From: Arthrobacter antibioticus | GTDB lineage: Bacteria; Actinomycetota; Actinomycetes; Actinomycetales; Micrococcaceae | NCBI RefSeq assembly: GCF_030063205.1 | Contig: NZ_JASISQ010000004.1 | Location: 1 to 64,000 of the forward strand | DNA: 64,000 nucleotides | Reading direction: 5' to 3' | Shown here: piece by piece, positions 14,238-31,591 of the stretch | How positions within the stretch are numbered: the stretch's first letter is position 1 | Layout: each line of letters begins with the position of its first letter | Program-made: the position numbers and the translations under genes | The notes under the pieces: model-generated | Told to the model about the DNA's origin: nothing | The model's input: only the letters and a program-made list of their open reading frames with translations | The model's database searches: none

Positions 14238-14241
14238 CGCC

Positions 14242-15744: not shown

Positions 15745-16605
15745 ATGACCATGCCAGCGCAGCCTTACACCCCCTACTCGGCCATCACCTATGTCGTCAC
15801 CGACCGTATTGCGACGGTTGCGCTGAACCGTCCGGAGGCTCGCAATGGGTACACACTTACCATGGCGGATGAGCTGGAGCACGCCTTCACGGGCGCAGAT
15901 GCTGACCCGGATGTACAGGTTGTGGTCTTCACAAGCGTGGGCAAGAACTTCTCCGTTGGTGCCGAGCTCAGTGGCGGGCGCTTTGTCATGTCAGACTTCT
16001 CCGATGCAGAGCAATGGCAGGAGCCTGCCGGACGCTGTTCAAAAACCATCTATGCCATGAACAAGCCTGTCATTGCGGCCATGCGCGGAGTAGCGGTGGG
16101 TGGCGGGCTAACCATCACGCTCTCCTGTGACTTCCGGCTGGCCGCACACGACTCCCGTTTCTCCTTCCCTTTCAGCCGTCGCGGAATCTTCCCCGAGGGC
16201 GGCTCGGTCTGGTATCTACCTCGTCTTGTGGGCGTTTCAAAAGCAACAGACTGGATGCTCACGGGCAGGCTCTTTGGGGCCGCTGAAGCGCTCGACGCCG
16301 GACTACTCACCTCATTGCACGAACCCGAGGACGTCCTTGAAGCCGCATACACCCTGGCCCGGGACCTCATAGAGAACACCTCCGAGGTCTCTACTGCCGT
16401 CATCAAACAAATGCTCAATAGACTCAGCGGCCTTGACTCCCCTCTTCCCGCCCATGCTATTGATTCGCAACTGATCTCCGGGGTGGGAGAGCATAAAGAC
16501 GCTGCTGAGGGCGTGGAATCGTTCCTTGAAAAGCGTCCTCCTCACTTTCCGTTGAGCGTGCCAAACGACCTGCCACAATGGTTGCCGTGGATAAAGACAG
16601 ATTGA
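15745..16605 (+). CDS. Crotonase family protein (atypical active site)
   Basis: 286 residues with the crotonase core: NRPEARNGYTLTM, the oxyanion segment around NFSVGAELSGG, and RGVAVGGGLTITLSCDFRLA. The position of the first catalytic glutamate of hydratases is Thr (GGGLTIT), and the second segment reads FSRRGIFPEGGSVW. It therefore belongs to the subgroup with an acidic residue only in PEGGS and may be an isomerase or another crotonase rather than a hydratase. It is followed four bases later by a TetR gene and is divergent from the beta-oxidation operon. Confidence 0.85.
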   Translation: MTMPAQPYTPYSAITYVVTDRIATVALNRPEARNGYTLTMADELEHAFTGADADPDVQVVVFTSVGKNFSVGAELSGGRFVMSDFSDAEQWQEPAGRCSKTIYAMNKPVIAAMRGVAVGGGLTITLSCDFRLAAHDSRFSFPFSRRGIFPEGGSVWYLPRLVGVSKATDWMLTGRLFGAAEALDAGLLTSLHEPEDVLEAAYTLARDLIENTSEVSTAVIKQMLNRLSGLDSPLPAHAIDSQLISGVGEHKDAAEGVESFLEKRPPHFPLSVPNDLPQWLPWIKTD

Positions 16606-16609
16606 CACC

Positions 16610-17230
16610 ATGAAACCTTTTGAGAGTGAAATAGTTGAACCGCGCCGGCAACGCCTCAACCCTGACGAGCGACGACAGCAGATCTTTTTATGCGCCCAAA
16701 AACTCTTCAACGCTCGCCCGTATGAGGAAGTTTCGGTCACAGACATTGCCGCGGCTGCCGGTGTTGCCCGCGGATTGATCAACCACTACTTTTCCAACAA
16801 GCGCGGGCTGTATCTAGAAGTCATCAAGGTCAGCTCAACTGTCTCCGAGGTGGCCGTGACACTGCTGCCCGAAGGATCCATCCACGAGCGCATAAATCTT
16901 GCTGTGGTGTGGTTCTTGGATTCATTGGAGCAATCCGGAGCTACCTGGCTGGCTTTAGGCTCGAGCGGTATGGGCCGCGATCCAGATCTTGAGAGAATCC
17001 TCATCGAGGCCGAGAACGATTCCATCGAGTTACTGATCGAGGCGTGCGGGCTGGGCGGGCGCACACAGGACCAAGAGCAAATCAAGGCCATGTTCAGGGT
17101 TTACACCCAACTTGCTCGCAGTGGCGCCCGTGAATGGTTACTGCGCAAGTCACTGACCCGCCCGCAGGTGCACGCCCTGTTGGCAAGCACGCTGCGGGCG
17201 ATCGTCAAGGAAGCAATCCCGGCCATCTGA
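16610..17230 (+). CDS. TetR family transcriptional regulator
   Basis: 206 residues. The N-terminal HTH spans about residues 20-66, with VTDIAAAAGVARGLINHYF as helix-turn-helix and the usual Tyr-Phe before the fourth helix. The ligand domain is not assignable. It sits in an operon with the upstream crotonase. The palindrome at 15690-15710 between this pair and the thiolase operon is the likely operator, so it probably represses fatty-acid genes until an acyl-CoA binds (inference). The ribosome-binding site is weak, suggesting coupling to the crotonase. Confidence 0.9.
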   Translation: MKPFESEIVEPRRQRLNPDERRQQIFLCAQKLFNARPYEEVSVTDIAAAAGVARGLINHYFSNKRGLYLEVIKVSSTVSEVAVTLLPEGSIHERINLAVVWFLDSLEQSGATWLALGSSGMGRDPDLERILIEAENDSIELLIEACGLGGRTQDQEQIKAMFRVYTQLARSGAREWLLRKSLTRPQVHALLASTLRAIVKEAIPAI

Positions 17231-17251: not shown

Positions 17252-18100
17252 TTAGGGGTCCACATAGAGATCGATCATCAGCTCCGCTGACGGGTCAACG
17301 GCGTAGCTCGCGAAATCGCTCACGCCGCGAGCACGCAAGAATTCCTCGTCAATGAGGCTTTGGCCAGTCAGCTCCTTGCTGGGCGTAGTGAGGATTGCAT
17401 GCGCGGCGTCCGCCATGATGGCAGGGTGCCGTGAACGCTGGATCATCCCCTGCCCGCCCAGCAGGTTTGCCACAGCTGCTGTGGCGATGGTGGTGCGCGG
17501 CCACAGGGCATTGGATGCCACACCCTGGCCGACAAATTCTGCTGCGAACCCCAGAGCCGCCAGCGTCATGCCGTACTTGGCCAGCGTGTAGGCCGGGTGC
17601 CCGCCCAGCCACTTCGGGTCTAAATTCAGCGGCGGGCTCAGCGTGAGGATGTGCGGATTAGCTGCCTGCAACAGGTGGGGCAGGGCTGCTTTGCTGAGCA
17701 TGAACGTGCCGCGCACGTTGACATCCTGCATGAGGTCATAGCGTTTGGCCGCCACTTTCAACGTTCCATCCAGGGAAATCACGCTGGCATTGTTAACCAC
17801 GATGTCGATCCCGCCAAAAGTATCCACAGCGTTCTGCACGGCCGAGGCGATGGTCTCGTCGTCGCGGACGTCGCCCACCACCGCGAGCACCTTCCCACCT
17901 GCCGCTTCAATCTCAGCCGCCGCAGTGTGGATGGTTCCTTCCAATCGCGGATCCGGGCTGTCCGTTTTCGCAATTAGCACCACATTCGCGCCGTCGCGGG
18001 CGGCCCGGATGGCAATGGCCAAGCCGATGCCGCGCGAACCTCCTGACATGAGGATTGTCTTTCCCTTCAGTGTTGAAATTTCACTAGATGTTTCGCTCAT
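17252..18100 (-). CDS. SDR family oxidoreductase, HSDL2-like
   Basis: About 282 residues. The cofactor motif is SGGSRGIG (19-26) with NNAS downstream, and the catalytic tyrosine-lysine pair is in AYTLAKYG. The blocks AKTDSPDPRLEGTI, LSPPLNLDPKW and NALWPRTTI follow hydroxysteroid-dehydrogenase-like protein 2. The start ATG with GGAG upstream overlaps the 3' end of the ligase gene by 17 bp; an in-frame ATG 21 bases earlier is weaker. Last gene of the AtuA operon, where it could fill the place of AtuB/AtuG, the SDRs of the Pseudomonas atu cluster (inference). Confidence 0.88.
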   Translation of the reverse strand: MSETSSEISTLKGKTILMSGGSRGIGLAIAIRAARDGANVVLIAKTDSPDPRLEGTIHTAAAEIEAAGGKVLAVVGDVRDDETIASAVQNAVDTFGGIDIVVNNASVISLDGTLKVAAKRYDLMQDVNVRGTFMLSKAALPHLLQAANPHILTLSPPLNLDPKWLGGHPAYTLAKYGMTLAALGFAAEFVGQGVASNALWPRTTIATAAVANLLGGQGMIQRSRHPAIMADAAHAILTTPSKELTGQSLIDEEFLRARGVSDFASYAVDPSAELMIDLYVDP

Positions 18101-19661
18101 GACCACTCCAATACGGTGCACGCAGATCGCGCTTCAGAATTTTTCCTGTCGCATTACGCGGCAGTTCGTCAATAAAATCAACTGAGGTGGGGCACTGGTA
18201 ATGCGCCAAACGTTCACGGCAAAACGCGATGATGTCAGCTTCGCTCACTGTACTGCCCGGAGCGCGGACAACAACAGCTTTGACAGTCTCTACCCATTTG
18301 GGATCTGGGACACCCATGACGATTCCCTCCGCGACTTCGGGGTGGGACATGAGCGCATTCTCCACTTCGGGACAGTAGATGTTTTCGCCACCGGAGATGA
18401 TCATGTCCTTGAGCCTGTCAACCATGTACAGGTAGCCGTCTTGGTCCATGTGCCCGATGTCCCCGGAACAAAGGAAGCCATCCGCGGTGATGGAGTTGGC
18501 TGTTGCCTCCGGCTTATTTAGGTACCCCTTCATATTTTGCCCGCCGCGGATCTGGATCTCGCCATTGACGCCGGTCGGGAGTACCTCGTGTGTAATGGGG
18601 TCCGCGATTCTCATCTCCACACCTGGCAGGACCCTGCCTACTGACTGCAAAACTTCCGGACGTGGAGGGTTTCGGTGATCCGAATCTTGGAGCATTGTGC
18701 CGATTCCGGACATTTCAGTCATCCCAAAGACATGCGCCAGCTCAGTATTGGGCCACGCTGCGAGTGTTCTGGTCAGCAGTGGTAACGGCATGGGTGAGGC
18801 ACCGTAGGCAATCTTTTTCATCGGAGCAAAAGCCGCCGCTGCCTGAGGACCGCCGGCCAGAACAGCATGGATAACAGCCGGGACTATGAAGGAGTGAGTG
18901 GCACCGTCGGCAATAGCTTTCATCATGGCCGGACCTGAGGCATCTCGAAGAAAAATGGTCTTGGCACCGGCATAAACACCCACCTGGAAATAGCATGAGC
19001 CACCCACATGGAACATGGGCATCCCCACCATACTGACATGCTCCGGTGCCATCCCCAATCCGTAGTTGGAGACAACACTGTGCATGTTCACGCTCTTGTG
19101 AGTCAGCTCCACACCCTTGGGGGTTCCCGTTGTTCCGGAGGTGTAAACGACAAGAACTGTGTCATCGGGGTTAACGTCCTGGTCTACTTCTGCCTCAGCT
19201 GCGGTCGCTGCACCGCTAGAGAGGAATGCCTCAAACTCGTCATTGTCTCCACCAATGACAACTGTGCGCGGTAGGGGCGTTTCGGCGTTTGCTGCCTCCA
19301 CAACGCTATGTAACTCCGCTCCATAAAAAACAATCTTCGGCGCGGAGTCCCTCAGAACGTACGCCAGTTGGCTTGGTGCCAGACGGTAGTTGCCCACCAC
19401 AGTGCCTGCACCTAGTGCCGAAGCCGCGTACGTTAGCTCAATAATGGCGAGGTGGTTTAAATCGAAGGTGAGAATGCGCTCGCCACGCTTGATCCCTGCG
19501 GCACGCAAGGCTTCGGTGAGCTGCAGGATCCTTGGACGCCATTGCGCCCATGTGTAGCTGACGTCACCAAAGGTGATTGCTGGAGCATCGGGGCGGTGCT
19601 GCGCCCAATGATCAAGTCGGTCCTGGAGGAATACTGGGGGCGCAAGGGCGTCAAGGGTCAT
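18084..19661 (-). CDS. Acyl-CoA synthetase (AMP-binding)
   Basis: 525 residues with all ANL motifs: VVYTSGTTGTPKGVELTH, then FGMTEMSG, then CSGDIGHMDQDGYLYMVDRL and a terminal lysine in LPRNATGKILKRDL. It activates a carboxylic acid to the CoA thioester. In this operon it most likely feeds the acyl-CoA dehydrogenase and carboxylase, matching AtuH of the atu pathway (inference). AAAGG lies seven bases before the ATG. The 142-bp gap upstream contains no gene and could hold an internal promoter. Confidence 0.92.
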   Translation of the reverse strand: MTLDALAPPVFLQDRLDHWAQHRPDAPAITFGDVSYTWAQWRPRILQLTEALRAAGIKRGERILTFDLNHLAIIELTYAASALGAGTVVGNYRLAPSQLAYVLRDSAPKIVFYGAELHSVVEAANAETPLPRTVVIGGDNDEFEAFLSSGAATAAEAEVDQDVNPDDTVLVVYTSGTTGTPKGVELTHKSVNMHSVVSNYGLGMAPEHVSMVGMPMFHVGGSCYFQVGVYAGAKTIFLRDASGPAMMKAIADGATHSFIVPAVIHAVLAGGPQAAAAFAPMKKIAYGASPMPLPLLTRTLAAWPNTELAHVFGMTEMSGIGTMLQDSDHRNPPRPEVLQSVGRVLPGVEMRIADPITHEVLPTGVNGEIQIRGGQNMKGYLNKPEATANSITADGFLCSGDIGHMDQDGYLYMVDRLKDMIISGGENIYCPEVENALMSHPEVAEGIVMGVPDPKWVETVKAVVVRAPGSTVSEADIIAFCRERLAHYQCPTSVDFIDELPRNATGKILKRDLRAPYWSGHERNI

Positions 19662-19803
19662 GGCAAGCCTTTCTTTGGCGCCGGCATCATTGCCGGCTTC
19701 TGGTCTGCGAGGTTCTATCTTGTGTGGATCGAGTGTTGCGCCAAACCACGGCGTGTTGTGAAGGAGCGTTGGTGCAAAGTGAACGTTGCCTGAAGGAGCG
19801 TCA

Positions 19804-20616
19804 CTAGGAAGTGGGGAGTTGCCAGGACGGTTGACGGCGTTCCAAGAATGCCGCCATGCCTTCCTTAACCTGATCAGTGGTGAAGAGTCTGGTAGAGAGT
19901 GCCGTCATTTCTGCAACCCCCGCATCCAACTGGGCCAGCATGGGTGCCGCCGCCACCTTCTTGCTTTCGGCCAGCCCCTGCGGGGCACCCAGGCGGAGAT
20001 TTTCCAAAATAGGTTCAAGGACGCCATCCACATCCTCCGCAGCGCAGGTGATGAGTCCGCACTCCTGCGCAGCAACAGCATCAAAGCTCTCCCCCGTGAG
20101 GTAATAGCGTGACACCGAACGGCTGCTCATGCGCCCCATGGTGGTCAGGGAGATGATGGCCGGGCCCAGCCCAATCCGCACTTCAGAGAAGGCAAAGGTG
20201 GCAGCCGTATGGGCCACAACTATGTCTGCGGCACCCAAGATGCCCAGCCCCCCTGCCCGGGCCACGCCGTCGACCCGGGCAACCACCGGCACCGGGGCGC
20301 TCAGGATGCTGCGCATAATCTTCGCCAGATTCTGCGCGCCCTCCGCAACTCCTTGCGCACCAGCTTCTTTCAGGTCCGCTCCAGCGCAAAAGACCTTGCC
20401 TGTATGGGCCAGCACAATAACGCGCACACTGCCATCGGCCGCCTCGGCACAGGCCTGTTCCAACCTGGCCAGTAACTGCGCCACTAGCTGTTGTGAGAGC
20501 GCATTGCGGTTGGCCGGTGAGTCCAGGGTGATAGTGGCAATTCCGGCTGCAAGGCCATAATGCACCAGCTCAGCGTCAGCTGACCCACTGCGCCCCGGCT
20601 GGGATTCAGTAGCCAT
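19804..20616 (-). CDS. Enoyl-CoA hydratase, methylglutaconyl/isohexenylglutaconyl-CoA hydratase-like
   Basis: 270 residues. The core GVARAGGLGILGAADIVVA followed by FAFSEVRIGLGPAIIS is typical of the AUH/LiuC/AtuE branch, which hydrates 3-methylglutaconyl-type CoA esters. The glutamate in SEVRIGL is the conserved catalytic one. It follows the acyl-CoA dehydrogenase by three bases. A biotin carboxylase upstream and an AUH-like hydratase downstream make a leucine- or terpene-type route the best reading (inference); isohexenylglutaconyl-CoA is favoured by the AtuA context. Confidence 0.85.
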   Translation of the reverse strand: MATESQPGRSGSADAELVHYGLAAGIATITLDSPANRNALSQQLVAQLLARLEQACAEAADGSVRVIVLAHTGKVFCAGADLKEAGAQGVAEGAQNLAKIMRSILSAPVPVVARVDGVARAGGLGILGAADIVVAHTAATFAFSEVRIGLGPAIISLTTMGRMSSRSVSRYYLTGESFDAVAAQECGLITCAAEDVDGVLEPILENLRLGAPQGLAESKKVAAAPMLAQLDAGVAEMTALSTRLFTTDQVKEGMAAFLERRQPSWQLPTS

Positions 20617-20619
20617 GGA

Positions 20620-21777
20620 TCAGTAGCTCTTGGGCAGACCGAGGGAATGCTGGGCCACAAAGTTCAGCACCATTTCCCTGCTCACCGGGGCCACCCTGCC
20701 GATCCTGGCCAGTCCCAGCATCTGTGCCAGCCCATATTCCTTGCTCAGACCATTCCCGCCCATGGCCTGGATAGCCGTATCCAAGGCATTAATGCTGGCT
20801 TCGGCTGCAGAATATTTGGCCATATTCGCGGCTTCCCCGGCAGCCATATCTTCACCCGCATCGTACAAAGCTGCGGCGCGCAGCATCATGAGCCGGCTCA
20901 GTTCAAGCTCAATATGACTCTTGGCAAGGGGGTGGGCAACACCTTGGTGCGCTCCAATGGGCTGACCCCATACCTCCCGTTCCTTGGCGTACGCAACCGC
21001 CTTGTTGATGGCGTAGCGGCCCGTGCCGACAGCTATGGCCGAAGCCATAATGCGCTCCGGGTTCAGACCGGCAAATAATGCTTCTAAGGGTGCATCCGTC
21101 CCTCCCACCAGAGCCTCGGCTGGCAGGCGAACATCGTCCAGGAAAAGCAGGTACTGTTTCTCGGACTCAATGATGTCCATCTCCACTTCCCTGTATTCAA
21201 AACCCGGTGTTTCCCGAGGCAGCACAAACATGGCTGGACGGAGGCGCCCACTGCGCTCATCCACCGTGCGGGCAACTATCAGAACGTAGTCGGCACTATT
21301 GACGCCTGTCACGTAGACCTTGCGGCCGTTCAGGACCCAATCGTCACCATCGCGGTGGGCCACGGTGGAAATATTGTGCGAGTTAGATCCAGCCTCGGGT
21401 TCGGTAATGCCGAAGGACATGACGATGGAACCGTCGGCAAACCCTGGCAGCCAGCGCTGCTTCTGTTCATCGGTGCCGTATTTGGCGATGATGGTTCCGC
21501 AGATAGCGGGGGAAACCACCATCATCAGCATGGACGCACCCAGTATGGAGGTTTCCTCCAATACGGCCGTCAACTCATAGATTCCTTGCCCACCTCCACC
21601 ATATTCTTCCGGAATTGAGACGCCCAGGAAACCGGACTCACCAAGTTCCTGCCATAGCTCAGTCATGGTTTCGCCTGCACGCGCGTGCTTGTTGGCGTAG
21701 TCAGGACCGTATTTATTGACGATCTCACGCACCGCTGCGCGCAAGGCCTGCTGTTCGTCTGTTTCAACAATGCTCAT
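20620..21777 (-). CDS. Acyl-CoA dehydrogenase
   Basis: 385 residues. It shows FGITEPEAGSNSHNIS and NGRKVYVTGVNSADY, the FAD/substrate core, and the C-terminal MGGNGLSKEYGLAQM with glutamate in the position of the general base. It would desaturate a 3-methyl-branched acyl-CoA before carboxylation, the role of AtuD (citronellyl-CoA dehydrogenase) or isovaleryl-CoA dehydrogenase. Electrons would pass to EtfAB. It lies 53 bp after the carboxylase alpha gene in the same operon. Confidence 0.9.
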   Translation of the reverse strand: MSIVETDEQQALRAAVREIVNKYGPDYANKHARAGETMTELWQELGESGFLGVSIPEEYGGGGQGIYELTAVLEETSILGASMLMMVVSPAICGTIIAKYGTDEQKQRWLPGFADGSIVMSFGITEPEAGSNSHNISTVAHRDGDDWVLNGRKVYVTGVNSADYVLIVARTVDERSGRLRPAMFVLPRETPGFEYREVEMDIIESEKQYLLFLDDVRLPAEALVGGTDAPLEALFAGLNPERIMASAIAVGTGRYAINKAVAYAKEREVWGQPIGAHQGVAHPLAKSHIELELSRLMMLRAAALYDAGEDMAAGEAANMAKYSAAEASINALDTAIQAMGGNGLSKEYGLAQMLGLARIGRVAPVSREMVLNFVAQHSLGLPKSY

Positions 21778-21830
21778 TTATTGCTCCTCATTGAGTTGGA
21801 AAATTTTTTTGGGAAGTGTTCCGGCGGGGC

Positions 21831-23840
21831 TCATTCAGGCTGCACTTCCACGACGGCCAGGACCATGCCCACGTCCACATTTTGTCCCACAGTGACATGC
21901 AGTTCGGAAACGATCCCGTCCGCTGGCGCCCCGATGGTGTGCAGCATCTTCATGGCTTCCAACACCAGAAGCGGCTGCCCCGCCGTCACCTGATCCCCCG
22001 CGGCAACATGCACGTTCACCACAGCGCCCGGCATGGGTGCTGTCAATGAACCTTCTGCCACAGCAAGGCTGGGGTCCGGGAAACGCTCCACCTCCGTAAA
22101 GGTGATGGAGCCGCCGTCACCATCAACCTCAAGAACAGTCCCAGCAGCGGTGGTGTAGTGTGCTACCGACCAGGAGCGCACCAGTCCCTCCAGCTCAAGG
22201 CTCACGTTCTCGGCACTGAGATGGACAATGGCGGCACCGCCGAACCCCTCTGCCATTAGCCCGTCTCGTGTCATCTCATATGAGACGTTGTGTTCCCCGG
22301 CCGGGCCCACCAGCGTGGATTGCTGTGGCATGGAGCGCAAGTTCCGCCAACCGCTGGGTAGTAGCCCCAACGTGGGGGCTTGTGTGCGGCGTAGCGCCGC
22401 TGCCGCAAGGGCTGCTGCGAGCGCCGCAACTTTTTCCTCGTCCGCTCCGGCCACCGGGGCCGCTAATACCTCGAGCCCATGGGTGGGAAGGAATGCTGTA
22501 TCTGTTTCACCGGCCAGAAAGGCCTCGTGCCGCAGGATGTTCACCAGCAAGTCCCGGTTGGTGCGGACACCGTGGATCCGCGCACGGGACAATGCCCGGG
22601 CCAGTGAGCGGGCCGCCTCCACCCGGGTGGGCGCCCAGGCAATAAGCTTGGCCAGCATGGGATCGTAATGGATGGAGACAGTGGAACCAGCTTCAACAGC
22701 CGAGTCCAAACGCACCCCCCGCTCACGGGTGGGCAGCGCGAAGTTCGCCGCCAGCCCATCAAAGTCAAAGCGCTGCACCGTACCGGTCTGCGGGGCCCAG
22801 CCAGCGGCTGGATCCTCAGCATAGAGGCGCACCTCAATGGATGAGCCGTGTGGTGCCGGCGGTTGTTCGGCCAAGGCAGCACCTGCTGCCACATCAAGTT
22901 GCAGCGCCACCAGGTCCAACCCTGTGGTGCACTCGGTGACAGGGTGTTCCACCTGCAGGCGTGTGTTGGTCTCCAAGAAGTAAAAGCGTCCAGAGGCATC
23001 GGCTAAGAATTCCACCGTTCCGGCGCCCACGTAGTTGACGGCCTTGGCCGCTGCAACGGCCGCCGCAAACAACTTCGCACGCATGCCGGGTGTTCGCTCC
23101 ACTAAGGGTGAAGGAGCCTCTTCCACAACTTTTTGGTGCCGCCGCTGGATGGAGCATTCACGCTCCCCTACCGCCCAGACGGTGCCGTGGGTGTCAGCCA
23201 TGACTTGCACTTCAACGTGGTGGCCCGTTTCCAGATACGGCTCACAAAAAACAGTTCCGTCACCGAAAGCGCTCGCCGCTTCTGTTCGGGCAGTCTCAAG
23301 CTCGGCCGGCAAATCTGCCAATGCGCGCACTATGCGCATTCCGCGGCCGCCACCACCGGCGGATGCTTTGATGAGCACGGGCAGCTGCGCCTCGGTGATA
23401 GCGGCCGGGTCCAACTCGCTCAGGACCGGCACTCCGCCTGCTTCCACCAGGAGCTTGGCTGAAATCTTGTCCCCCATGGCATCAATGGCTTCCGGGGAGG
23501 GTCCAATCCAGATCAGCCCGGCAGCCTGAACACTCCTGGCAAAGTCGCCGTTCTCAGACAAGAACCCGTAACCCGGATGGATGGCGTTAGCACCGGCGCG
23601 CAGAGCGGCGGCAATGATGAGCTCACCGCGCAGGTAGGTTTCGGCGGCGCTTGTCCCAGGCAGGTGCACCGCGGTGTCGGCCTCGGCTACGAAGGGGGCT
23701 CCGGCGTCGGCCGTGGAATAAACCGCAACAGTGCCGATGCCGCGTTCGCGGCAGCTGTGGAACACGCGGCGGGCAATTTCGCCACGGTTGGCCACGAGCA
23801 CACGGGTGATGGGTTCAGCGTTGGTGGAGGGTTGGCTCAT
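21831..23840 (-). CDS. Acyl-CoA carboxylase alpha subunit (biotin carboxylase plus BCCP)
   Basis: About 669 residues. An N-terminal biotin carboxylase domain starts VLVANRGEIARRVF; its ATP-grasp centre includes KASAGGGGRGMR and ECSIQRRHQKVVEEAPS. A middle linker follows, and the C-terminal biotinyl domain has the target lysine in LEAMKMLH about 35 residues from the end. It carboxylates its own biotin for the adjacent carboxyltransferase. The start MSQPSTN has AGGA eight bases upstream; earlier in-frame ATGs overlap the preceding gene. It corresponds to AtuF or LiuD by gene order. Confidence 0.93.
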   Translation of the reverse strand: MSQPSTNAEPITRVLVANRGEIARRVFHSCRERGIGTVAVYSTADAGAPFVAEADTAVHLPGTSAAETYLRGELIIAAALRAGANAIHPGYGFLSENGDFARSVQAAGLIWIGPSPEAIDAMGDKISAKLLVEAGGVPVLSELDPAAITEAQLPVLIKASAGGGGRGMRIVRALADLPAELETARTEAASAFGDGTVFCEPYLETGHHVEVQVMADTHGTVWAVGERECSIQRRHQKVVEEAPSPLVERTPGMRAKLFAAAVAAAKAVNYVGAGTVEFLADASGRFYFLETNTRLQVEHPVTECTTGLDLVALQLDVAAGAALAEQPPAPHGSSIEVRLYAEDPAAGWAPQTGTVQRFDFDGLAANFALPTRERGVRLDSAVEAGSTVSIHYDPMLAKLIAWAPTRVEAARSLARALSRARIHGVRTNRDLLVNILRHEAFLAGETDTAFLPTHGLEVLAAPVAGADEEKVAALAAALAAAALRRTQAPTLGLLPSGWRNLRSMPQQSTLVGPAGEHNVSYEMTRDGLMAEGFGGAAIVHLSAENVSLELEGLVRSWSVAHYTTAAGTVLEVDGDGGSITFTEVERFPDPSLAVAEGSLTAPMPGAVVNVHVAAGDQVTAGQPLLVLEAMKMLHTIGAPADGIVSELHVTVGQNVDVGMVLAVVEVQPE

Positions 23841-23856
23841 GAGTGTCATCCTTGAC

Positions 23857-25452
23857 TCACATCCGGAAGACGCCAAAGCCCTCGGCGCCCTTGATGTCGG
23901 TGGTGGCGATGGCAGAAAGTGCCAGACCTATTACGTTGCGGGTGTCGCGGGGGTCGATGATGCCATCGTCGTACAGCTTCCCGGAGAGGAAAGTGGGCAG
24001 CGATTCCGCCTCGATCTGAGCTTCAACGGCTGAGCGCATGGCGGCGTCGGCGTCCTCATCAAAGTCACGTCCGCTGGATGCCGCCGCGGCTCTGCCCACA
24101 ATGGACATGACTCCCGCCAGTTGCGCGGCCCCCATGACGGAGGACCGGGCGCTGGGCCAGGAGAACAGGAATCGCGGATCAAAGGCTCGCCCGCACATGC
24201 CGTAATGTCCTGCCCCGAAGGATGCACCCATCAGAACTGACAGGTGCGGGACGGTGGAGTTGGAGACGGCGTTGATCATCATGGAACCGTGCTTGATGAT
24301 CCCGGCCTGCTCGTACTCTTTGCCCACCATGTAGCCGGTGGTGTTGTGCAGGAACAGCAGCGGGGTGTTGGCGGAGTTGGCAAGCTGGATGAATTGGGCG
24401 GCTTTTTGCGCCTCGGCTGAGAACAGCACGCCGCGGGCGTTGGCCAAAATACCCACCGGGTGTCCGTGGATTCTTGCCCAGCCCGTCACCAAGGACGTGC
24501 CGTACAGGGCCTTGAACTCATCAAAGTCACTGCCATCCACAACCCGGGCAATGACTTCACGGGGATCGAAGGGAACTTTGAGATCTGCGGGGATGATCCC
24601 CAACAGCTCTTCCTCAGCTAGGCGGGGTTCCTTGGAGGCGGCAGGAGTTGCACCCTTTTTAACCCAGTTGAGCCGTGCCACAATCCGACGGCCAATCCGC
24701 AGCGCATCCATCTCATCCAGTGCGTAGTAATCGGCAAGCCCGGAGATCCGGGCGTGCATGTCAGCACCACCAAGGGATTCATCATCTGATTCCTCCCCCG
24801 TGGCCATCTTCACCAGAGGTGGGCCAGCCAAAAAAACCTTGGACCGTTCCTTGATCATGACAATGTGATCACTCATGCCCGGAACGTATGCTCCTCCGGC
24901 TGTGGAGTTGCCAAACACCAGTGCAATGGTGGGGATTCCTGCGGCCGAAAGCCGGGTGAGGTCCCGGAATAGTTTGCCGCCAGGGATGAAGATTTCGCTC
25001 TGGGTGGGCAGATCCGCTCCACCGGATTCAACCAGTGAGATCACCGGCAGCCGATTCTCCCTGGCGATGTCCAAGGCCCGGAAGATCTTCTTGGTGGTGT
25101 ACGGGTTGGAGGTGCCGCCCTTGACGGTGGGCTCGTGCGCCACGATTAAGCACTCCACACCTTCCACCACGCCAATGCCCGTCACAACGCTGGCACCCAC
25201 ATGGAACTTAGTGCCCCACGCTGCCAAAGGAGAGAGCTCAAGGAACGGAGAATCCCTGTCAATGAGCATCTCAGCCCGCTCCCGGGCCAGCAGCTTCCCG
25301 CGTTTGCGGTGCCTTGTGACAGCTTTTTCACCACCACTTTGGCGAACCTTGGCATATTCACCGTCGAGCTCAGTTAACTTCTGAACCATAGCCGCCCTAT
25401 TGGAGGTGAAGTCAGCACTGAGTGGGTCTATAGTTGTGCGCAAAACGCTCAC
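23857..25452 (-). CDS. Acyl-CoA carboxylase beta subunit (carboxyltransferase), MCC/GCC type
   Basis: About 531 residues with both crotonase-like carboxyltransferase halves. GGAYVPGMSDH, FLAGPPLVKMATGEES and LGGADMHARISG match methylcrotonyl-/geranyl-CoA carboxylases rather than acetyl/propionyl enzymes. GTG at 25452 is the best start: GGAGG lies seven bases upstream and it overlaps the AtuA stop as GTGA. An ATG 42 bases earlier would overlap AtuA heavily. By order it matches AtuC or LiuB. Substrate choice between methylcrotonyl- and geranyl-type CoA needs a pocket alignment. Confidence 0.92.
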   Translation of the reverse strand: MSVLRTTIDPLSADFTSNRAAMVQKLTELDGEYAKVRQSGGEKAVTRHRKRGKLLARERAEMLIDRDSPFLELSPLAAWGTKFHVGASVVTGIGVVEGVECLIVAHEPTVKGGTSNPYTTKKIFRALDIARENRLPVISLVESGGADLPTQSEIFIPGGKLFRDLTRLSAAGIPTIALVFGNSTAGGAYVPGMSDHIVMIKERSKVFLAGPPLVKMATGEESDDESLGGADMHARISGLADYYALDEMDALRIGRRIVARLNWVKKGATPAASKEPRLAEEELLGIIPADLKVPFDPREVIARVVDGSDFDEFKALYGTSLVTGWARIHGHPVGILANARGVLFSAEAQKAAQFIQLANSANTPLLFLHNTTGYMVGKEYEQAGIIKHGSMMINAVSNSTVPHLSVLMGASFGAGHYGMCGRAFDPRFLFSWPSARSSVMGAAQLAGVMSIVGRAAAASSGRDFDEDADAAMRSAVEAQIEAESLPTFLSGKLYDDGIIDPRDTRNVIGLALSAIATTDIKGAEGFGVFRM

Positions 25453-27155
25453 AGTAGTTCCTCCGGAATCGATAGGTGGCGGGCTCGAAGCCATTCGCCC
25501 AAAGCCTTGGCCTGCGCGTCAAAGCGAGCATTGGAGGCCACGCCTTCACCGAGCAGTCCACGAATAACAAAGTTCACGGCGTGCAGATTTGGCAGCACAT
25601 GGCGTTGAATTTCCAACGACTGAGTCTCCGGTAACAGCTCCTGGAGCTTTTCCACGCTTAGAGTGTTGACCAGCCAGGGCCACGCCTGTTCGTTCTCCAC
25701 CCATACACCCACGTTGGCGTCCCCGCCCTTATCACCGCTGCGGGCCGCTGCCACGCGTCCTAGTGGGGCACGCGTTGATGTACTTGATTGCTCCAATGGC
25801 GGTAGTTCCGGTTCGGGTACTGGTGCCAGTGCGACGGCGGAAGTGACGGTTTCGCTGGCGGGTGGGAGCAGGATTTCGGTGCCGTCGGGCAGCGCAACCT
25901 TGTGTGGGACCTCGCTCGCGGCAACCCAGCCGGGCCGGTAGATACCGTAGGGTGCGGCATTGCCGGGGGGTGAGGTGAGGTGGAAACCTGGGTAGCTGGC
26001 CAGGCCAATCTGCACGGCGGCGTTGGAGAACGCCCGGCCCACAATCGCAGGGTCGGTTCCGCGAGCTACACAATGGAGCATGGCGCTGGCTTCTTCACAA
26101 TTGTCCGCGTCCGGGTGGTCGGTGCGGGCAAGGCTCCAGCGTGTTCCTTCGGGCACTGCATCTGCGAGCTGGCTTTTGATCAGTGCCGCTTTTTTGTCGA
26201 TATCCAGGCCAGTCAGCACGAACGTGACCTCGTTGCGGTAGCCACCTAATTCGTTGATGGAGACCTTCAGCGTGTCCGGCGGGGCCTCCCCCCGCACGCC
26301 AGCCAGACGCACCCGGTCCGGGCCGTCGTCGTCAATGGCAATGGAGTCAAGACGCAGCACCGCGTCAGGTCCGGCATATCGGGCACCGGTGATCTCGTAG
26401 ACAAGCTGGGCGGTGACGGTTCCTTTTGTAACTGCCCCAGAGGTACCTGGATGCTTGGTGATCACGGAAGATCCATCCGCGGAGATCTCGGCAATGGGGA
26501 AACCGGGGCGGTGCATATCCTTGATGGTGTCAAAGAAGGAGTAGTTCCCACCAGTTGCCTGGGTGCCGCACTCAATCACATGCCCGGCGGCCATGGCCCC
26601 GGCAATTTTGTCATAGTCGGTGGGTTGCCAACCGAAATGGTGTGCGGCGGCGCCCACCACCAGCGAGGCATCGGTGACGCGGCCGGTGACCACAATCTCA
26701 GCCCCTGCCCCCAAGGCTGCGGCGATCCCCCAACCACCCAGGTAGGCATTGGCGGAGAGTGGTTTTCCAGCTGCCGTGCTGAACCCCAACTCTGTGGCAC
26801 GGTCAATGAGATCATCGCCGTACACGTGGGCAATTTTGGCGTCCACACCCAGCGTGACTGTCAGTTCTTGGAGCTTGGCAGCCAATCCTGCGGGGTTGAG
26901 GCCGCCGGCATTGACAACAATCTTCACGCCCTTTTCCATCGCCAGTGCCAGGCTGTCGCGCATCTGTGCCAAGAAAGTCTTCGCGTAACCGGTACTTGGG
27001 TCCTTGGCCCGGTCCCTGGCTAGGATGAGCATTGTCAGCTCGGCAAGGTAGTCCCCGGTAATTACATCTACCGGGCCACCCTCCAGCATCTCTGTGAAGG
27101 CCCCAGCCCTGTCCCCGTAGAATCCGGATGCGTTGGCAACGCGCAGTGCACTCAT
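25449..27155 (-). CDS. atuA: AtuA family protein (DUF1446 plus ferredoxin-like C-terminal domain)
   Basis: 568 residues. The N-terminal DUF1446 domain (about 1-440) begins RVANASGFYGDRAGAF and contains VDVITGDYLAELTM and NAGGLNPAGLA. The C-terminal domain (about 465-568) has ARSGDKGGDANVGVWV. The family is named after AtuA of Pseudomonas acyclic-terpene utilisation; its biochemical role is not established. Translation is coupled at both ends: ATGA overlap with the TIGR03084 gene and GTGA overlap with the carboxyltransferase. Its presence points the operon to terpenoid-like acids rather than plain leucine (inference). Confidence 0.9.
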   Translation of the reverse strand: MSALRVANASGFYGDRAGAFTEMLEGGPVDVITGDYLAELTMLILARDRAKDPSTGYAKTFLAQMRDSLALAMEKGVKIVVNAGGLNPAGLAAKLQELTVTLGVDAKIAHVYGDDLIDRATELGFSTAAGKPLSANAYLGGWGIAAALGAGAEIVVTGRVTDASLVVGAAAHHFGWQPTDYDKIAGAMAAGHVIECGTQATGGNYSFFDTIKDMHRPGFPIAEISADGSSVITKHPGTSGAVTKGTVTAQLVYEITGARYAGPDAVLRLDSIAIDDDGPDRVRLAGVRGEAPPDTLKVSINELGGYRNEVTFVLTGLDIDKKAALIKSQLADAVPEGTRWSLARTDHPDADNCEEASAMLHCVARGTDPAIVGRAFSNAAVQIGLASYPGFHLTSPPGNAAPYGIYRPGWVAASEVPHKVALPDGTEILLPPASETVTSAVALAPVPEPELPPLEQSSTSTRAPLGRVAAARSGDKGGDANVGVWVENEQAWPWLVNTLSVEKLQELLPETQSLEIQRHVLPNLHAVNFVIRGLLGEGVASNARFDAQAKALGEWLRARHLSIPEELL

Positions 27156-27973
27156 GCTTTTTCCTCCTGAGTTTCTGCAGTCGCGGCTGGTTCTCGCCCT
27201 CTACCGGGAGGGCCGGCGAATGCCTGCGCTATGTCAAGCCATTTATCGGCATCTGCGCCCTGGGCTACCAAAGCCAGATCGTCACGGTGCCGGCGCTTAG
27301 CGGCCAGCAAACAAAAGTCAAGAGCTGGGCCACTGACTCGCTGCGCAGCATCTATCGGTCCCCACGTCCACAGTTCTCCTGTGGGACTGTCGAGTTCAAC
27401 CCGGAACTCGTGCTCTGGAGGCGTCAATTCATGCACCGTGAAGGCGAAGTTGCGTGTCCGGACTGCCAGGTGGGCAATGTGTTGGAGCCGATCCGTAGGC
27501 TCGCGTATGAGCGCCAACGCATCGGCAACGTCCTGGCCGTGGGCCCACGTTTCCATGATGCGTGCTGTTGCCATGGACAGGGCGCTCATGGATGGACCAA
27601 ACCAAGGCAGCTTAACACCCGGTGCCACGTTCTCCAGCGCCTGGGCCATCTGCTTCCGGCCCTCACGCCATCTCTGCAATAACTGAGCCGGTGGCATGGC
27701 AGCCCATTCTGCGGCGGCGCTGTCAATCGAGATCTGCCCCGCGCGCAAAGCGGCACCCATGGCAGTAAATGCTGCTGGCTGACCGTTGGCCGCCGCTGCA
27801 GCATCAGTTGCCACTTCATCTGTCCAGGCCAAGTGTCCTATTTGGTGCGCCACACTCCACTCAGGGGCCGGCGTTGCCATGGTCCAACCCGCAGCAGGCA
27901 TGGCCGTGAGCATCTCGTCCAAGACCATCGATTCAGCTTCCAAATCGTTCAGTACGCCTGCCAAATCCACCAT
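27152..27973 (-). CDS. TIGR03084 family metal-binding protein (DinB/maleylpyruvate-isomerase-like fold)
   Basis: About 273 residues from MVDLAGVLNDLEAES, preceded by GGAG at seven bases; upstream in-frame codons are unsupported. The N-terminal half looks like the mycothiol-dependent maleylpyruvate isomerase/DinB four-helix fold, with conserved histidines in SVAHQIGHLAW and ETWAHGQDVADAL. These could bind a metal. Function is unknown. First gene of the AtuA operon and coupled to atuA by ATGA. A thiol- or CoA-linked step is only a guess from the fold. Confidence 0.85.
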   Translation of the reverse strand: MVDLAGVLNDLEAESMVLDEMLTAMPAAGWTMATPAPEWSVAHQIGHLAWTDEVATDAAAAANGQPAAFTAMGAALRAGQISIDSAAAEWAAMPPAQLLQRWREGRKQMAQALENVAPGVKLPWFGPSMSALSMATARIMETWAHGQDVADALALIREPTDRLQHIAHLAVRTRNFAFTVHELTPPEHEFRVELDSPTGELWTWGPIDAAQRVSGPALDFCLLAAKRRHRDDLALVAQGADADKWLDIAQAFAGPPGRGREPAATAETQEEKA

Positions 27974-28103
27974 GTTCCAACTCCGTTCGTTGAGGTTCGC
28001 AGAACTACTTACCCGCTGCCATCTATAGAGGTAAGTCACGCATGTTCCGCAGTGTCAGGACTACTGCCATCATCAAGGTGCGCGGTGCTGATCCGGTCAT
28101 CGC

Positions 28104-28157
28104 ACTTGTTATGCAAGTATGTGACGTAGATCAATAAAAAGCAAGCAAGCTTGCTTG
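28104..28157. promoter_or_regulatory. TetR-type operators between AtuA operon and regulator
   Basis: A perfect 16-bp palindrome, CAAGCAAGCTTGCTTG (28142-28157), lies about 27 bp before the likely TetR start. ACTTG, five bases, CAAGT (28104-28118) is a second inverted repeat nearer the operon. Both are built from CTTG/CAAG half-sites. The position between divergent units suits autoregulation plus operon control. The factor assignment is inference. Confidence 0.7.
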
Positions 28158-28184
28158 TTTTCTTTTCATGCTAACGTCCCTTGT

Positions 28185-28796
28185 ATGAGCAGAATGGCCA
28201 TCGAACCCCGGCAGGACCGTAGTCGCATTACGCGTGAGCGTCTTCTGGAAAGCGCCGTGGCTTTGCTTTCTGAGACGGGATGGACCAATACCACCGTCAC
28301 TACCGTTGCCACTCACGCAGGGGTTTCCCGTGGCGCAACACAGCACCACTTCCCCACTAGAGACGATCTCTTCACAGCAGCAATCGAACACATGACGGTA
28401 GCGCGAGTCCTTGAAGTCCGAGCCGCCCTGGCAGTCCATTCAGAGGGCTCAGCCCCCGTGCGAGAAGTTCTCGATTCCCTCGTGGGCCTGTACACAGGTC
28501 CACTCTTCAAAGCCGCGCTGCAGGTTTGGACGGCAGCCGCCGTGGATCCAGTGGTGCGCGCGCACATCATCCCCTTGGAACAAACTGTGGCTCGAGAAGC
28601 ATTCAGGCTGGCGGCAACGCTACTGAACATCGACAGGGAAAACCCTCGACTTCGTGCCATCGTCGCAGCCACTCTTGACCTGGGGCGCGGACTTGGTCTT
28701 GCCAATATCCTCACCGACGACGCCAATCGGCGGACCTGGGTGCTTGACGCCTGGTGCGCCGAACTAGAGCAGATCATCGCCCAAGAGGCCCACTAA
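28185..28796 (+). CDS. TetR family transcriptional regulator (AtuR-like by context)
   Basis: About 203 residues from the ATG at 28185; a second ATG follows at 28194, and a far-upstream TTG would begin inside the operator. HTH: TVATHAGVSRGATQHHF at about residues 35-55, a typical TetR recognition region. The C-terminal domain resembles TetR_C families, with no ligand motif visible. It is divergent from the AtuA operon, as atuR is from atuA in Pseudomonas. There is no strong Shine-Dalgarno, so leaderless or near-leaderless translation is possible. Confidence 0.88.
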   Translation: MSRMAIEPRQDRSRITRERLLESAVALLSETGWTNTTVTTVATHAGVSRGATQHHFPTRDDLFTAAIEHMTVARVLEVRAALAVHSEGSAPVREVLDSLVGLYTGPLFKAALQVWTAAAVDPVVRAHIIPLEQTVAREAFRLAATLLNIDRENPRLRAIVAATLDLGRGLGLANILTDDANRRTWVLDAWCAELEQIIAQEAH

Positions 28797-29028: not shown

Positions 29029-30009
29029 GTGGTCACTATCCGCGATGTTGCCAAACATGCGGGCGTTTCTCCTGCCACTGTTTCCAGGGTTGTCAATGGG
29101 CTGGTGGGTTACTCAGATGAGACCCGATGCCGTGTAGAAAACGCAGTGAAAACGCTGAACTATGAAACGGACTCTCTCGCCCGAGGCCTCAAGACGCGGC
29201 AAACCTCCGTGATCGGACTACTGGCCCCCATGGTTTCGGATGCTTTAGCCTCGCAGGTCATGTTGGGAGTTGAAGATGAAGCAAGGGAACGAGGCTACGC
29301 TGTGATGCTTGGCCGCACAGGTGCCAAGTCAACATATATAGCAAGTTATCTAAGGACGCTGCGCACTTACCGAGCGGCGGGTGTCATCCTCATTTCCGCT
29401 GTGATCACCTCTGAGACGCGGCAGTTGTTGGGGACTAAGGTACCCTTAATCTCAGTCGCCATCAGCGACAAATCCGGCTCCCCCAGCGTGGCAATTGACG
29501 ATGAACTGGCAGCCTATGAGTCCACCCGTCATTTACTCCGACTCGGCCACCGCCAAATCGGTCTACTAGAGGGGGATCCGGCATCAATATACGTCGCATT
29601 GCCTCGCAAACGCGGTTACCTCCGCGCCATGGCCGAAGCCGGCTGTAGTCCTATTACCGCTGCTGGCAACTTCTTCTACGAAAGTGGTGCAGCAGGGGTT
29701 GAAAAACTACTGCAGCAAGATCCTTCTCTGACCGCCATCTTCGCGTTGAGCGATGAAATGGGCGCAGCAGCCGTCAATGAACTTCAACGCCGTGGGCTGC
29801 GGGTTCCAGAAGATATCTCGGTTCTGGGCTTCGACAATACCGCAACAGCCCTGCATGTGAACCCCCCATTGAGCACCATGTCACAGCCGCTTGAAGAAAT
29901 GGGACGAATGGCAGTGAAAAAACTGCTTCGCTCCCGTGACCTCGGACCAAAGATCATGCCACACAGGTTGATTGAGAGAGGCTCCACGGCAGTCCTTAGC
30001 ACCATATGA
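29029..30009 (+). CDS. LacI family transcriptional regulator
   Basis: 326 residues. The N-terminal HTH is TIRDVAKHAGVSPATVSRVV with the hinge helix following; the rest is a periplasmic-binding-protein-like ligand domain (about 60-326). GTG start with GGAGGAGG-like sequence at ideal spacing. It precedes a sugar ABC importer and a GH13 glycosidase on the same strand and almost certainly controls them. The inducer is probably the imported oligosaccharide (inference). Operator-like sites lie upstream, and a half-site CGTTTACC near 30043 precedes the transporter. Confidence 0.93.
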   Translation: MVTIRDVAKHAGVSPATVSRVVNGLVGYSDETRCRVENAVKTLNYETDSLARGLKTRQTSVIGLLAPMVSDALASQVMLGVEDEARERGYAVMLGRTGAKSTYIASYLRTLRTYRAAGVILISAVITSETRQLLGTKVPLISVAISDKSGSPSVAIDDELAAYESTRHLLRLGHRQIGLLEGDPASIYVALPRKRGYLRAMAEAGCSPITAAGNFFYESGAAGVEKLLQQDPSLTAIFALSDEMGAAAVNELQRRGLRVPEDISVLGFDNTATALHVNPPLSTMSQPLEEMGRMAVKKLLRSRDLGPKIMPHRLIERGSTAVLSTI

Positions 30010-30160
30010 CGCCATCGAAGCCCGCTGCTGAAGATACCAATTCGTTTACCCCACAGTCCCCACTCCGGTGGTAGCTGCCGTGCTCTGTGCCGCCAGCACT
30101 CCAGAAATATTTCCCAACACAACAAACAATCTGCTTTACAAAGAAAATAAGGAGCATCAC

Positions 30161-31480
30161 ATGAGGCAACGCCGCCGCACTTGGCAGACTCTTCTGGCCA
30201 CCAGCGCATCCCTAACCGTCGTCGCCGTCGCCCTTACCGGTTGCGGTGGCACGGCCTCAGAAACACAAGACACTTCCAAAGACACTGCCGTGTCTTTCGA
30301 AGGTAAGGGCCCTATCAACTACGTCTCAAATCGCGACGCTTCCGGTGCTGCAAACAGGAGCATCGACGAGTGGAATACAGCCCACCCGGATGAGAAGGTT
30401 ACTTTCATTGAACTACCAGACTCTGCGGACCAGCAACGTCAGCAGCTGATCCAGAACGCCCAGATCAAATCAGATACTTTCAGCGTATTGAATCTTGATG
30501 TTGTCTGGACCTCAGAGTTCGCCGCTAACAAGTGGATTATGCCGCTGCCCCAGGACGCCGTTCCCACGGCGGATATGATTCCAGCCACCGTCAATGCGGC
30601 GAGCTACCGCGACACTTTGGTTGGTGCTCCCTACTACACCGACGGCGCCCTTTTCTACTTCCGCTCAGATCTCCTCAAAGCCGCTGGAATTGCCAACCCA
30701 CCCAAAACTTGGGATGAGATGAAGAGCGCCTGCGCGTCGATCTTGGCGCTGCCCGAAGCTGCGGGTATGTCCTGTTACACCGGCCAATTCGATAAAAACG
30801 AGGCCCTCACGGTCAACTTCTCCGAGGCCGTAGCCTCCGCAGGTGGCACCGTGGTGGACGCCGACGGCAAACCTACTGTTAATACTGCTGAGGCAAAAGC
30901 CGGACTGAACCTGCTAGTGGATGGTTTCAAGGAGGGAATGTTCCCTTCTGACGCCATCACCTACCTTGAAGAGCAGGGACGGCGCGCCTTCCAAGATGGA
31001 GAACTCGTCTTTATGCGTAACTGGCCCTTCCTGCATGCCTCGCTAAGCGCCACAGACGGCTCAAGTAAGGTGGCCGGAAAGTTTGATATCTCCGCCATTC
31101 CAGGTACGGACGGTCCGGGCGTCTCCACCCTTGGAGGCCGCAGCCTCGCCATCTCTCCTTTCACCGAAAATAAGGCAACAGCCCTGGAATTCTTGAAGTT
31201 CTTCACTAGTGAGGAGCAGTCCAAAAAGCGTCTTGCGCTGTCCTCGCGAGCCCCGGTCTACGCTTCACTGTTCGCCGATCCCGACGTCATTGCCAAGCGA
31301 CCGTTCTTCCCGATCCTTCTGACCTCACTAAATAATGCGCAGCCCCGCCCCAAGGTGGTCCAGTACGGCGCCACCACCAAGGCCATTCAAGAAGAGGCTT
31401 ATGCGGCTATCACTGGCAAGAAGGACACTGACACGGCTCTGAAAGACATGCAAAGCAAACTCGCCGAGTTGGTCAAGTAA
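30161..31480 (+). CDS. Sugar ABC transporter substrate-binding lipoprotein
   Basis: About 439 residues. The start MRQRRRTWQT has GGAG seven bases upstream. The signal peptide ends in the lipobox ALTGC with C28 as the lipidated cysteine. The mature part is a cluster-B binding protein (family 1, MalE/trehalose type) with PYYTDGALFYFRSDLL and ALEFLKFFTSEEQSK. It captures an oligosaccharide outside the cell for the two permeases downstream. Maltose, trehalose or sucrose-like glucosides are likely given the GH13 gene (inference). Confidence 0.92.
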   Translation: MRQRRRTWQTLLATSASLTVVAVALTGCGGTASETQDTSKDTAVSFEGKGPINYVSNRDASGAANRSIDEWNTAHPDEKVTFIELPDSADQQRQQLIQNAQIKSDTFSVLNLDVVWTSEFAANKWIMPLPQDAVPTADMIPATVNAASYRDTLVGAPYYTDGALFYFRSDLLKAAGIANPPKTWDEMKSACASILALPEAAGMSCYTGQFDKNEALTVNFSEAVASAGGTVVDADGKPTVNTAEAKAGLNLLVDGFKEGMFPSDAITYLEEQGRRAFQDGELVFMRNWPFLHASLSATDGSSKVAGKFDISAIPGTDGPGVSTLGGRSLAISPFTENKATALEFLKFFTSEEQSKKRLALSSRAPVYASLFADPDVIAKRPFFPILLTSLNNAQPRPKVVQYGATTKAIQEEAYAAITGKKDTDTALKDMQSKLAELVK

Positions 31481-31523
31481 TTCAGGCATAGCTTTTTATC
31501 CCCGAGAAGCCCAGAGACTACCG

Positions 31524-31555: not shown

Positions 31556-31591
31556 TCGCTAGGCTATTGCAACTCCAGTGAGGTACCAACC

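What the first reader, a model, noticed from the sequence alone, without database searches (positions are those of the whole stretch)
17252..28796. Actinobacterial cluster with the full gene set of an acyclic-terpene (atu) pathway
One minus-strand run encodes AtuA, an MCC/GCC-type carboxylase (both subunits), an acyl-CoA dehydrogenase, an AUH/AtuE-like hydratase, an acyl-CoA ligase and an SDR, with a divergent TetR. These match AtuA, C/F, D, E, H, B/G and AtuR of Pseudomonas in kind. No HMG-CoA lyase is present, which argues against plain leucine breakdown. It also carries a TIGR03084 gene, coupled to atuA, that is not part of the described atu set. The substrate may be a citronellate-like or other 3-methyl-branched acid.
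Basis: partly seen in the sequence, partly recalled or inferred. Interest (0 to 1): 0.72.

Follow-up and report, generated by a model that had tools for sequence, protein, structure and literature searches.

The report
Actinobacterial isoprenoid-acid breakdown gene cluster
An actinobacterium carries, beside its ordinary leucine pathway, a second set of genes that looks built to dismantle bulkier methyl-branched (terpene-like) acids, and the same kind of set recurs across actinobacteria, apparently including the mycobacterial AccA2-AccD2 carboxylase whose job is unknown.

The parts
27152..28039 (-). [not shown]
   Evidence: TIGR03084 338.5 bits, PF11716 94.8 bits; H69/E163/H167 invariant in a 22-row alignment
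25449..27155 (-). AtuA: citramalate-lyase-like large domain fused to a small ferredoxin-like domain; candidate acetate-releasing lyase
23857..25494 (-). Carboxyltransferase (beta) subunit with geranyl-CoA-carboxylase-type pocket (Gly172, no 3-residue insertion)
   Evidence: pocket rule from PMC4673880
21831..23876 (-). Biotin carboxylase / biotin carrier (alpha) subunit with MCC-type BT domain
   Evidence: PF02786, PF00289, PF02785, PF00364, PF21139
20620..21777 (-). Acyl-CoA dehydrogenase (would make the 2-enoyl-CoA)
   Evidence: PF02771, PF02770, PF00441; none of the 22 NCBIfam models listed reaches its cut-off
19804..20616 (-). Enoyl-CoA hydratase family PRK07827 (candidate hydratase of the carboxylated enoyl-CoA)
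   Evidence: NF005879 318.3 bits against cut-off 283; nearest solved chains 4knp and 3oc7
18084..19661 (-). AMP-forming acyl-CoA ligase (would activate the free acid)
   Evidence: PF00501 237 bits, PF13193
17252..18121 (-). SDR oxidoreductase of the PRK08278 family
   Evidence: NF006133 431 bits against cut-off 250
28155..28796 (+). Divergent TetR-family regulator (likely start 28185)
   Evidence: PF00440; start from conservation
28139..28156 (.). Palindrome AAGCAAGCAAGCTTGCTT, candidate operator between the divergent genes
   Evidence: perfect 8+2+8 palindrome in the window, largely conserved in an alignment with 9 same-genus loci

Best explanation
The cluster encodes a catabolic route that removes the beta-methyl branch from an isoprenoid-type acid larger than isovalerate (citronellate-, geranate-, farnesoate- or phytanate-like). 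Proposed steps: the ligase makes the CoA ester; the acyl-CoA dehydrogenase makes the 3-methyl-2-enoyl-CoA; TIGR03084 sets the double-bond geometry that the carboxylase needs (inferred); the biotin enzyme carboxylates the gamma-methyl group; the hydratase adds water to give a 3-hydroxy-3-alkylglutaryl-CoA; AtuA, built like citramalate lyase and probably using ATP, splits off the carboxymethyl arm as acetate (or acetyl phosphate) and leaves a 3-oxoacyl-CoA for thiolase. The TetR probably represses the operon from a conserved palindrome. Shown by sequence or structure prediction: gene content, widened carboxylase pocket, separate leucine operon, AtuA fold, TIGR03084 link to AtuA, conserved palindrome. 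Inferred: every reaction, the substrate class, ATP use, the isomerase role.
For: Pocket: gap-free match to GCC 5ikl in the pocket segment, GCC ranking first there (105.3 bits against 99.4 for MCC 3u9r). 113 of 113 carboxyltransferases in AtuA-holding loci lack the insertion (Gly in 108, Ala in 4, Thr in 1); both solved chains named MCC (3u9r, 8j4z) and four rows that share their clade have insertion plus Phe. That six-row clade is supported at 98/99 and 100/99. Own genome has bkd-MCC-ACAD-CoA transferase-MaoC-CitE genes on C16 at about 320-333 kb and two BT_MCC_alpha genes. AtuA fold: 9evf_A and 9evf_B. AtuA-like ThnQS reported to cleave a 3-hydroxy-3-alkylglutaryl-CoA-type substrate (PMC12016498 passages). 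TIGR03084 genomes also have AtuA in 114 of 115, against 84 of 120 for a urease control.
Against: Over its whole length the carboxyltransferase scores nearer MCC 3u9r (581 bits) than GCC 5ikl (492), and over the 91-residue segment the GCC piece is 54% identical to the window but 59% to MCC 3u9r. It forms a third clade when the tree is drawn without the distant outgroup; one AtuA-linked row (L028) stays outside the AtuA-linked clade. The hydratase is not an AtuE orthologue. Citramalate lyase is 15% identical, a shared fold does not show function, and active-site residues could not be compared. AtuA also occurs without a carboxyltransferase nearby (4 of 38 unnamed-genome loci; plasmid loci L025, L026, L027 by annotation), so its use is wider. 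No growth, expression or enzyme data.
Confidence: 0.66

Rival explanations
1. It is a second leucine/isovalerate operon with AtuA in place of HMG-CoA lyase.
For: Overall bit score nearest MCC 3u9r; no PF00682-type HMG-CoA lyase found in the genome.
Against: MCC signature (Phe plus 3-residue insertion) absent; a leucine operon with an MCC-type enzyme is present elsewhere; in M. smegmatis deletion of accD2-accA2 leaves isovalerate growth like wild type whereas accD1-accA1 is needed (PMC4347857 passages).
Confidence: 0.06
2. It acts on a branched or cyclic acid that is not an isoprenoid (for example a 3-alkyl-branched alkanoate or an alicyclic acid), with the same carboxylation-hydration-lyase chemistry.
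For: AtuA-like lyase ThnQS serves a cyclic naphthalene-derived acid (PMC12016498); a wide pocket may tolerate many side chains; breadth of distribution.
Against: Gamma-carboxylation by this enzyme lineage needs a 3-methyl-2-enoyl-CoA, and the common natural sources are isoprenoids (established knowledge).
Confidence: 0.22
3. TIGR03084 is not an isomerase but a thiol transferase or thiol-dependent detoxifying protein that protects cells from reactive enals or enoyl-CoAs of the pathway.
For: The superfamily is broad (PF11716, PF12867, TIGR03083 all match); in several genomes of the mycobacterial type it is far from the operon.
Against: Tight co-occurrence with AtuA and the 4-nt overlap with atuA suggest a step of the pathway.
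Confidence: 0.35

Closest known systems
Pseudomonas acyclic terpene utilisation (atu) pathway
   Same: AtuA, two-subunit carboxylase with GCC-type pocket, acyl-CoA dehydrogenase, hydratase, ligase, SDR and TetR regulator with a palindrome in the divergent intergenic region
   Different: Own carboxylase clade; hydratase is not the AtuE orthologue; adds TIGR03084; substrate unproven
Mycobacterial accA2-accD2 operon (Rv0971c-Rv0976c), role unknown
   Same: Same six-gene order in 67 of 80 named loci; AtuA 58-65% and carboxyltransferase mostly 73-77% identical to the window's
   Different: Extra acyl-CoA dehydrogenase; the window's ligase and SDR not detected in those loci; TIGR03084 near AtuA in only 1 of 80; M. 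tuberculosis itself was not among the 80, so identity with the Rv numbers is inferred from gene order
Citramalate lyase (PDB 9evf, ADP-pyruvate complex)
   Same: Both chains' folds match the two domains of AtuA; both substrates carry a carboxymethyl arm on a tertiary carbinol
   Different: 15% identity; two chains rather than one; substrate not a CoA ester
Mycothiol-dependent maleylpyruvate isomerase (MDMPI)
   Same: N-terminal domain PF11716; conserved His/Glu/His as in the MDMPI metal site (site recalled)
   Different: Separate NCBIfam family TIGR03084; substrate unknown

Membership tests
atu pathway | AtuA family protein | tested here: met
   PF07287 502 bits, cut-off 22.8
atu pathway | Geranyl-CoA carboxylase pocket: no 3-residue insertion, Gly in place of MCC Phe | tested here: met
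   rule from PMC4673880
atu pathway | Carboxyltransferase groups with characterised GCC | tested here: inconclusive
   With a distant outgroup it joins proteobacterial GCC-like rows at 100/99, with a long-branch warning; without it there are three well supported clades and the root decides; only a 91-residue piece of 5ikl was available
atu pathway | Hydratase orthologous to AtuE | tested here: not met
   NF004227 133.9 bits against cut-off 426; 4zu2, named isohexenylglutaconyl-CoA hydratase, E 1.2e-22 and 5xzd (AtuE by recall) E 2.5e-17, against 4.1e-68 for the best chain
atu pathway | TetR regulator with inverted-repeat operator next to its promoter | tested here: met
   palindrome 28139-28156, largely conserved in 10 aligned sequences; binding not tested
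atu pathway | Growth on or induction by citronellol or geranate | not testable with these tools
   needs an experiment
leucine/isovalerate (liu) pathway | MCC-type Phe and insertion in the carboxyltransferase | tested here: not met
leucine/isovalerate (liu) pathway | HMG-CoA lyase or CitE-type lyase in the operon | tested here: not met
   none among the eight genes; a CitE-type gene sits in the separate leucine operon
MDMPI superfamily | MDMPI_N domain | tested here: met
   PF11716 9.4e-27
MDMPI superfamily | His/Glu/His metal triad | tested here: met
   H69, E163, H167 invariant in 22 rows; that these are the metal ligands is recalled, not tested
MDMPI superfamily | Mycothiol-dependent cis-trans isomerisation | not testable with these tools
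   MshC is present in the genome; no assay possible
citramalate lyase fold | Fold of large and small subunit | tested here: met
   [not shown]
citramalate lyase fold | Active-site and nucleotide-binding residues conserved | not tested

The most novel reading that the evidence does not exclude
Actinobacteria, mycobacteria included, share a conserved isoprenoid-acid pathway in which a mycothiol-dependent isomerase (TIGR03084) sets the geometry for a geranyl-type carboxylase, and AtuA is a new ATP-dependent, acetate-forming lyase related to citramalate lyase. This would give the first specific role for mycobacterial AccA2-AccD2 and settle what AtuA does.
Probability: 0.3. Interest if true: 0.82.

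Novelty: new variant of a known kind. Interest (0 to 1): 0.62.

Why it matters
Two open questions become directly testable. First, which enzyme performs the lyase step of acyclic terpene breakdown: one source assigns AtuA (PMC4847356), another LiuE (PMC4097962). Here no LiuE-type (PF00682) HMG-CoA lyase was found in the genome, and AtuA has a citramalate-lyase fold. Second, what mycobacterial AccA2-AccD2 does: its role was left open in 2015 (PMC4347857), and a 2022 paper reports its operon 20-300 fold up in hypoxia and stationary phase and repeats that no role had been determined (PMC9283954). The TIGR03084 link gives a family with no hit in the literature searched a concrete proposed reaction.

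Tried and rejected
Plain leucine operon: rejected on the pocket signature and on the separate leucine operon. Absence of HMG-CoA lyase as an argument: given little weight, because the genome's leucine operon carries a CitE-type gene. AUH/AtuE-like hydratase: not supported. Own genome lacking MCC: my first reading, overturned when L003 proved MCC-type.

Searches that gave little: phmmer of AtuA against PDB sequences, 0 hits at E up to 1; TIGR03084 alone, one weak hit to a PPE protein that I take as spurious, and its profile, one weak hit to yfiT, E 0.25; TIGR03084 in the literature, 0 papers; the DUF1446/AtuA whole-word search was swamped by Portuguese text; the phytol/actinobacteria search listed nothing specific; in the listing no paper holds both 'citramalate lyase' and 'AtuA'. 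These statements are limited to the held open-licence library. In one search the second row with E under 0.001 is an aspartate kinase with TM about 0.2, and most rows below 9evf fall on residues 304-405; neither was interpreted.

Limits of the counts: the AtuA match list was cut by the tool (150 rows transcribed, 137 of 151 genomes), so 54 genomes with adjacent TIGR03084-AtuA is a lower bound. If the six genomes with TIGR03084 matches below cut-off are added, AtuA is present in 115 of 121 (only G127 of the six has it). The Fisher value 1e-47 ignores phylogeny; the urease control (84 of 120, odds ratio 3.8) shows how much shared ancestry can give. Among 118 relatives, TIGR03084 without AtuA occurs in G058 and G069, and AtuA without TIGR03084 in G110. 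Before the pocket count I left out L004 (same gene as the window), L002 (distant outgroup) and L003, L190, L192 (no AtuA in the locus), leaving 113 of 118; mycobacterial rows dominate and are not independent. Of the six rows I call MCC, only 3u9r and 8j4z are so named by depositors; 9tps (deposited as propionyl-CoA carboxylase beta), 9yx0, L003 and L192 are so called by me from motif and clade. The tree used 30 rows; L002, L028, L100 and others of the 45 were left out.
Full report
What is there. TIGR03084 and atuA overlap by 4 nt. AtuA occurs in 10 of 21 same-genus genomes searched, and the gene order is kept in all 10, the ligase being detected in 8. The window is the first 64 kb of contig 16 of a 3.79 Mb genome.

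The carboxylase. The Pseudomonas GCC structure paper gives a rule: MCC-beta has a Phe in the acyl pocket preceded by a three-residue insertion; GCC-beta has Gly and no insertion, and swapping the residue shifts substrate preference (PMC4673880, passages read). The window subunit has EIFIPG-GKLF where MCC has EVFPDREHFGRIF. In this segment solved GCC ranks first and aligns without gaps, 105.3 bits against 99.4 for MCC 3u9r. Against this, over full length MCC scores higher (581 against 492 bits), and over the 91 residues the GCC piece is 54% identical to the window and 59% to MCC 3u9r. Of 113 subunits from AtuA-holding loci none has the insertion; the residue is Gly in 108, Ala in 4, Thr in 1. 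The two solved chains named MCC and four rows that share their clade, among them the window genome's second enzyme of this lineage, all have insertion and Phe. In a maximum-likelihood tree those six rows form a clade (98/99) apart from a 37-row clade (100/99) of AtuA-linked rows with proteobacterial GCC-like enzymes; one AtuA-linked row, L028, lies outside both, and the tool warns of long branches. Without the distant outgroup three clades remain (MCC, proteobacterial GCC with the 5ikl piece, actinobacterial AtuA-linked), each well supported, and the root decides which are sisters. So the enzyme has a GCC-type pocket, but I do not file it inside the GCC clade.

Not leucine. The genome has three carboxyltransferase matches and two BT_MCC_alpha genes. 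One carboxyltransferase, at C16:326.7 kb, is MCC-type and sits in a run encoding 2-oxoacid dehydrogenase E1 alpha, E1 beta and E2, both MCC subunits, an acyl-CoA dehydrogenase, a CoA transferase, a MaoC dehydratase and a CitE/HpcH protein. This resembles the mycobacterial leucine operon named in PMC9283954 (passages). PF00682 gave two hits in the genome, with frames of 587 and 1160 aa, read as isopropylmalate synthase and pyruvate carboxylase.

TIGR03084. It belongs to the mycothiol-dependent maleylpyruvate isomerase superfamily, with H69, E163 and H167 invariant in 22 diverse rows. In a class sample of 296 genomes, 114 of 115 with TIGR03084 over cut-off also have AtuA (115 of 121 if sub-cut-off matches are added); AtuA is present in 151. 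The two are adjacent on one strand in at least 54 genomes. In others they lie hundreds of kilobases or more apart on one contig (for example G163, G195, G324, G364, G395). An unrelated family of like frequency, urease alpha, coincides with AtuA in 84 of 120. The 115 genomes span 35 genera, each with at least one genome carrying both. Within the window's genus 10 of 21 relatives have both and 11 have neither, though there the genes are in one operon. The four annotated proteobacterial AtuA loci I read (L026, L027, L189, L191) list no TIGR03084 gene, as expected if it needs mycothiol; the window genome has MshC. GCC acts on cis-geranyl-CoA (PMC4097962), and the known MDMPI reaction is a cis-trans isomerisation (recalled). 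I therefore propose that TIGR03084 sets the double-bond geometry for the carboxylase or its product. This is the boldest and least tested step.

The mycobacterial link. The order AtuA-ACAD-CT-BC-ACAD-ECH is complete in 67 of 80; 75 of 80 keep the carboxyltransferase, and of the five without it four end at a contig edge and one (L166) lacks it. TIGR03084 lies near AtuA in one of the 80 (L186). [quoted passage not shown] PMC4347857 reports that AccD2 diverges from MCC in the pocket motif, that the M. smegmatis accD2-accA2 deletion grows on isovalerate like wild type, and that its role is open (passages). Gene count and order match; that the sixth gene, Rv0976c, is AtuA is my inference by position, since M. 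tuberculosis was not among the 80.

Regulation. The divergent intergenic region holds a perfect 8+2+8 palindrome at 28139-28156, largely conserved in nine aligned same-genus loci and placed between the two divergent starts. This resembles the atu system, where AtuR binds inverted repeats (reference title seen).

Breadth and substrate. AtuA occurs in 151 of 296 class genomes and in none of the tool's 14 control genomes. Such breadth suggests common or internal isoprenoids (phytol- or polyprenol-derived acids, inference) rather than citronellol alone. Annotated plasmid copies in Tsukamurella, Mycolicibacterium, Rhodococcus and Dietzia already carry the name AtuA and, in three of the four, TIGR03084, so the gene set is visible in public annotation; its reading as one pathway was not seen in the listings of the ten paper searches or the passages read.

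Verdict. Observation confirmed, interpretation partly supported. It works like the atu pathway at the carboxylation and, by predicted fold, the lyase step; full membership fails on the AtuE test and is open on substrate.

Noticed in passing
window 11131-15465 (-): Enoyl-CoA hydratase-like, FadB-type and thiolase ORFs lie next to the cluster (read from translations) and could finish beta-oxidation of the 3-oxoacyl-CoA product; a thiolase hit also lies at the edge of L073 and L074.
   Followed up: partly
window 15745-17230 (+): A second hydratase (nearest PRK08260, just under cut-off) and a second TetR gene converge on the end of the cluster; one or both are also seen next to it in several same-genus loci.
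   Followed up: partly
window 29029-35213 (+): LacI-type regulator, sugar ABC transporter parts and an alpha-glucosidase-like enzyme form an apparently separate sugar-use cluster (read from ORF translations only).
   Followed up: no
L025:11977-13767: Pseudonocardia plasmid AtuA sits with TRAP transporter genes and no annotated carboxylase, so AtuA may serve other pathways too.
   Followed up: no
L085 (one of two AtuA loci of G298): A genome of the mycobacterial type holds an AtuA-TIGR03084 pair without carboxylase genes nearby, besides the usual operon (L086).
   Followed up: no
L166: One mycobacterial MAG keeps AtuA, two dehydrogenases and the hydratase but no carboxylase genes were detected within its 21.8 kb.
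   Followed up: no
rows such as G152:C432, G232:C152, G316:C20: Some AtuA matches lie in open frames of only about 455-485 aa, suggesting two-gene versions like the two chains of citramalate lyase 9evf.
   Followed up: no
L191:7488-9611: Achromobacter plasmid atu-like cluster carries an acetate--CoA ligase family gene next to the carboxyltransferase, which may activate the substrate or reclaim acetate.
   Followed up: no
L190:9608-11236: A GCC-like carboxyltransferase on a Pseudoalteromonas plasmid has no annotated AtuA or biotin carboxylase gene in the 20 kb read (the plasmid gene table is incomplete).
   Followed up: no
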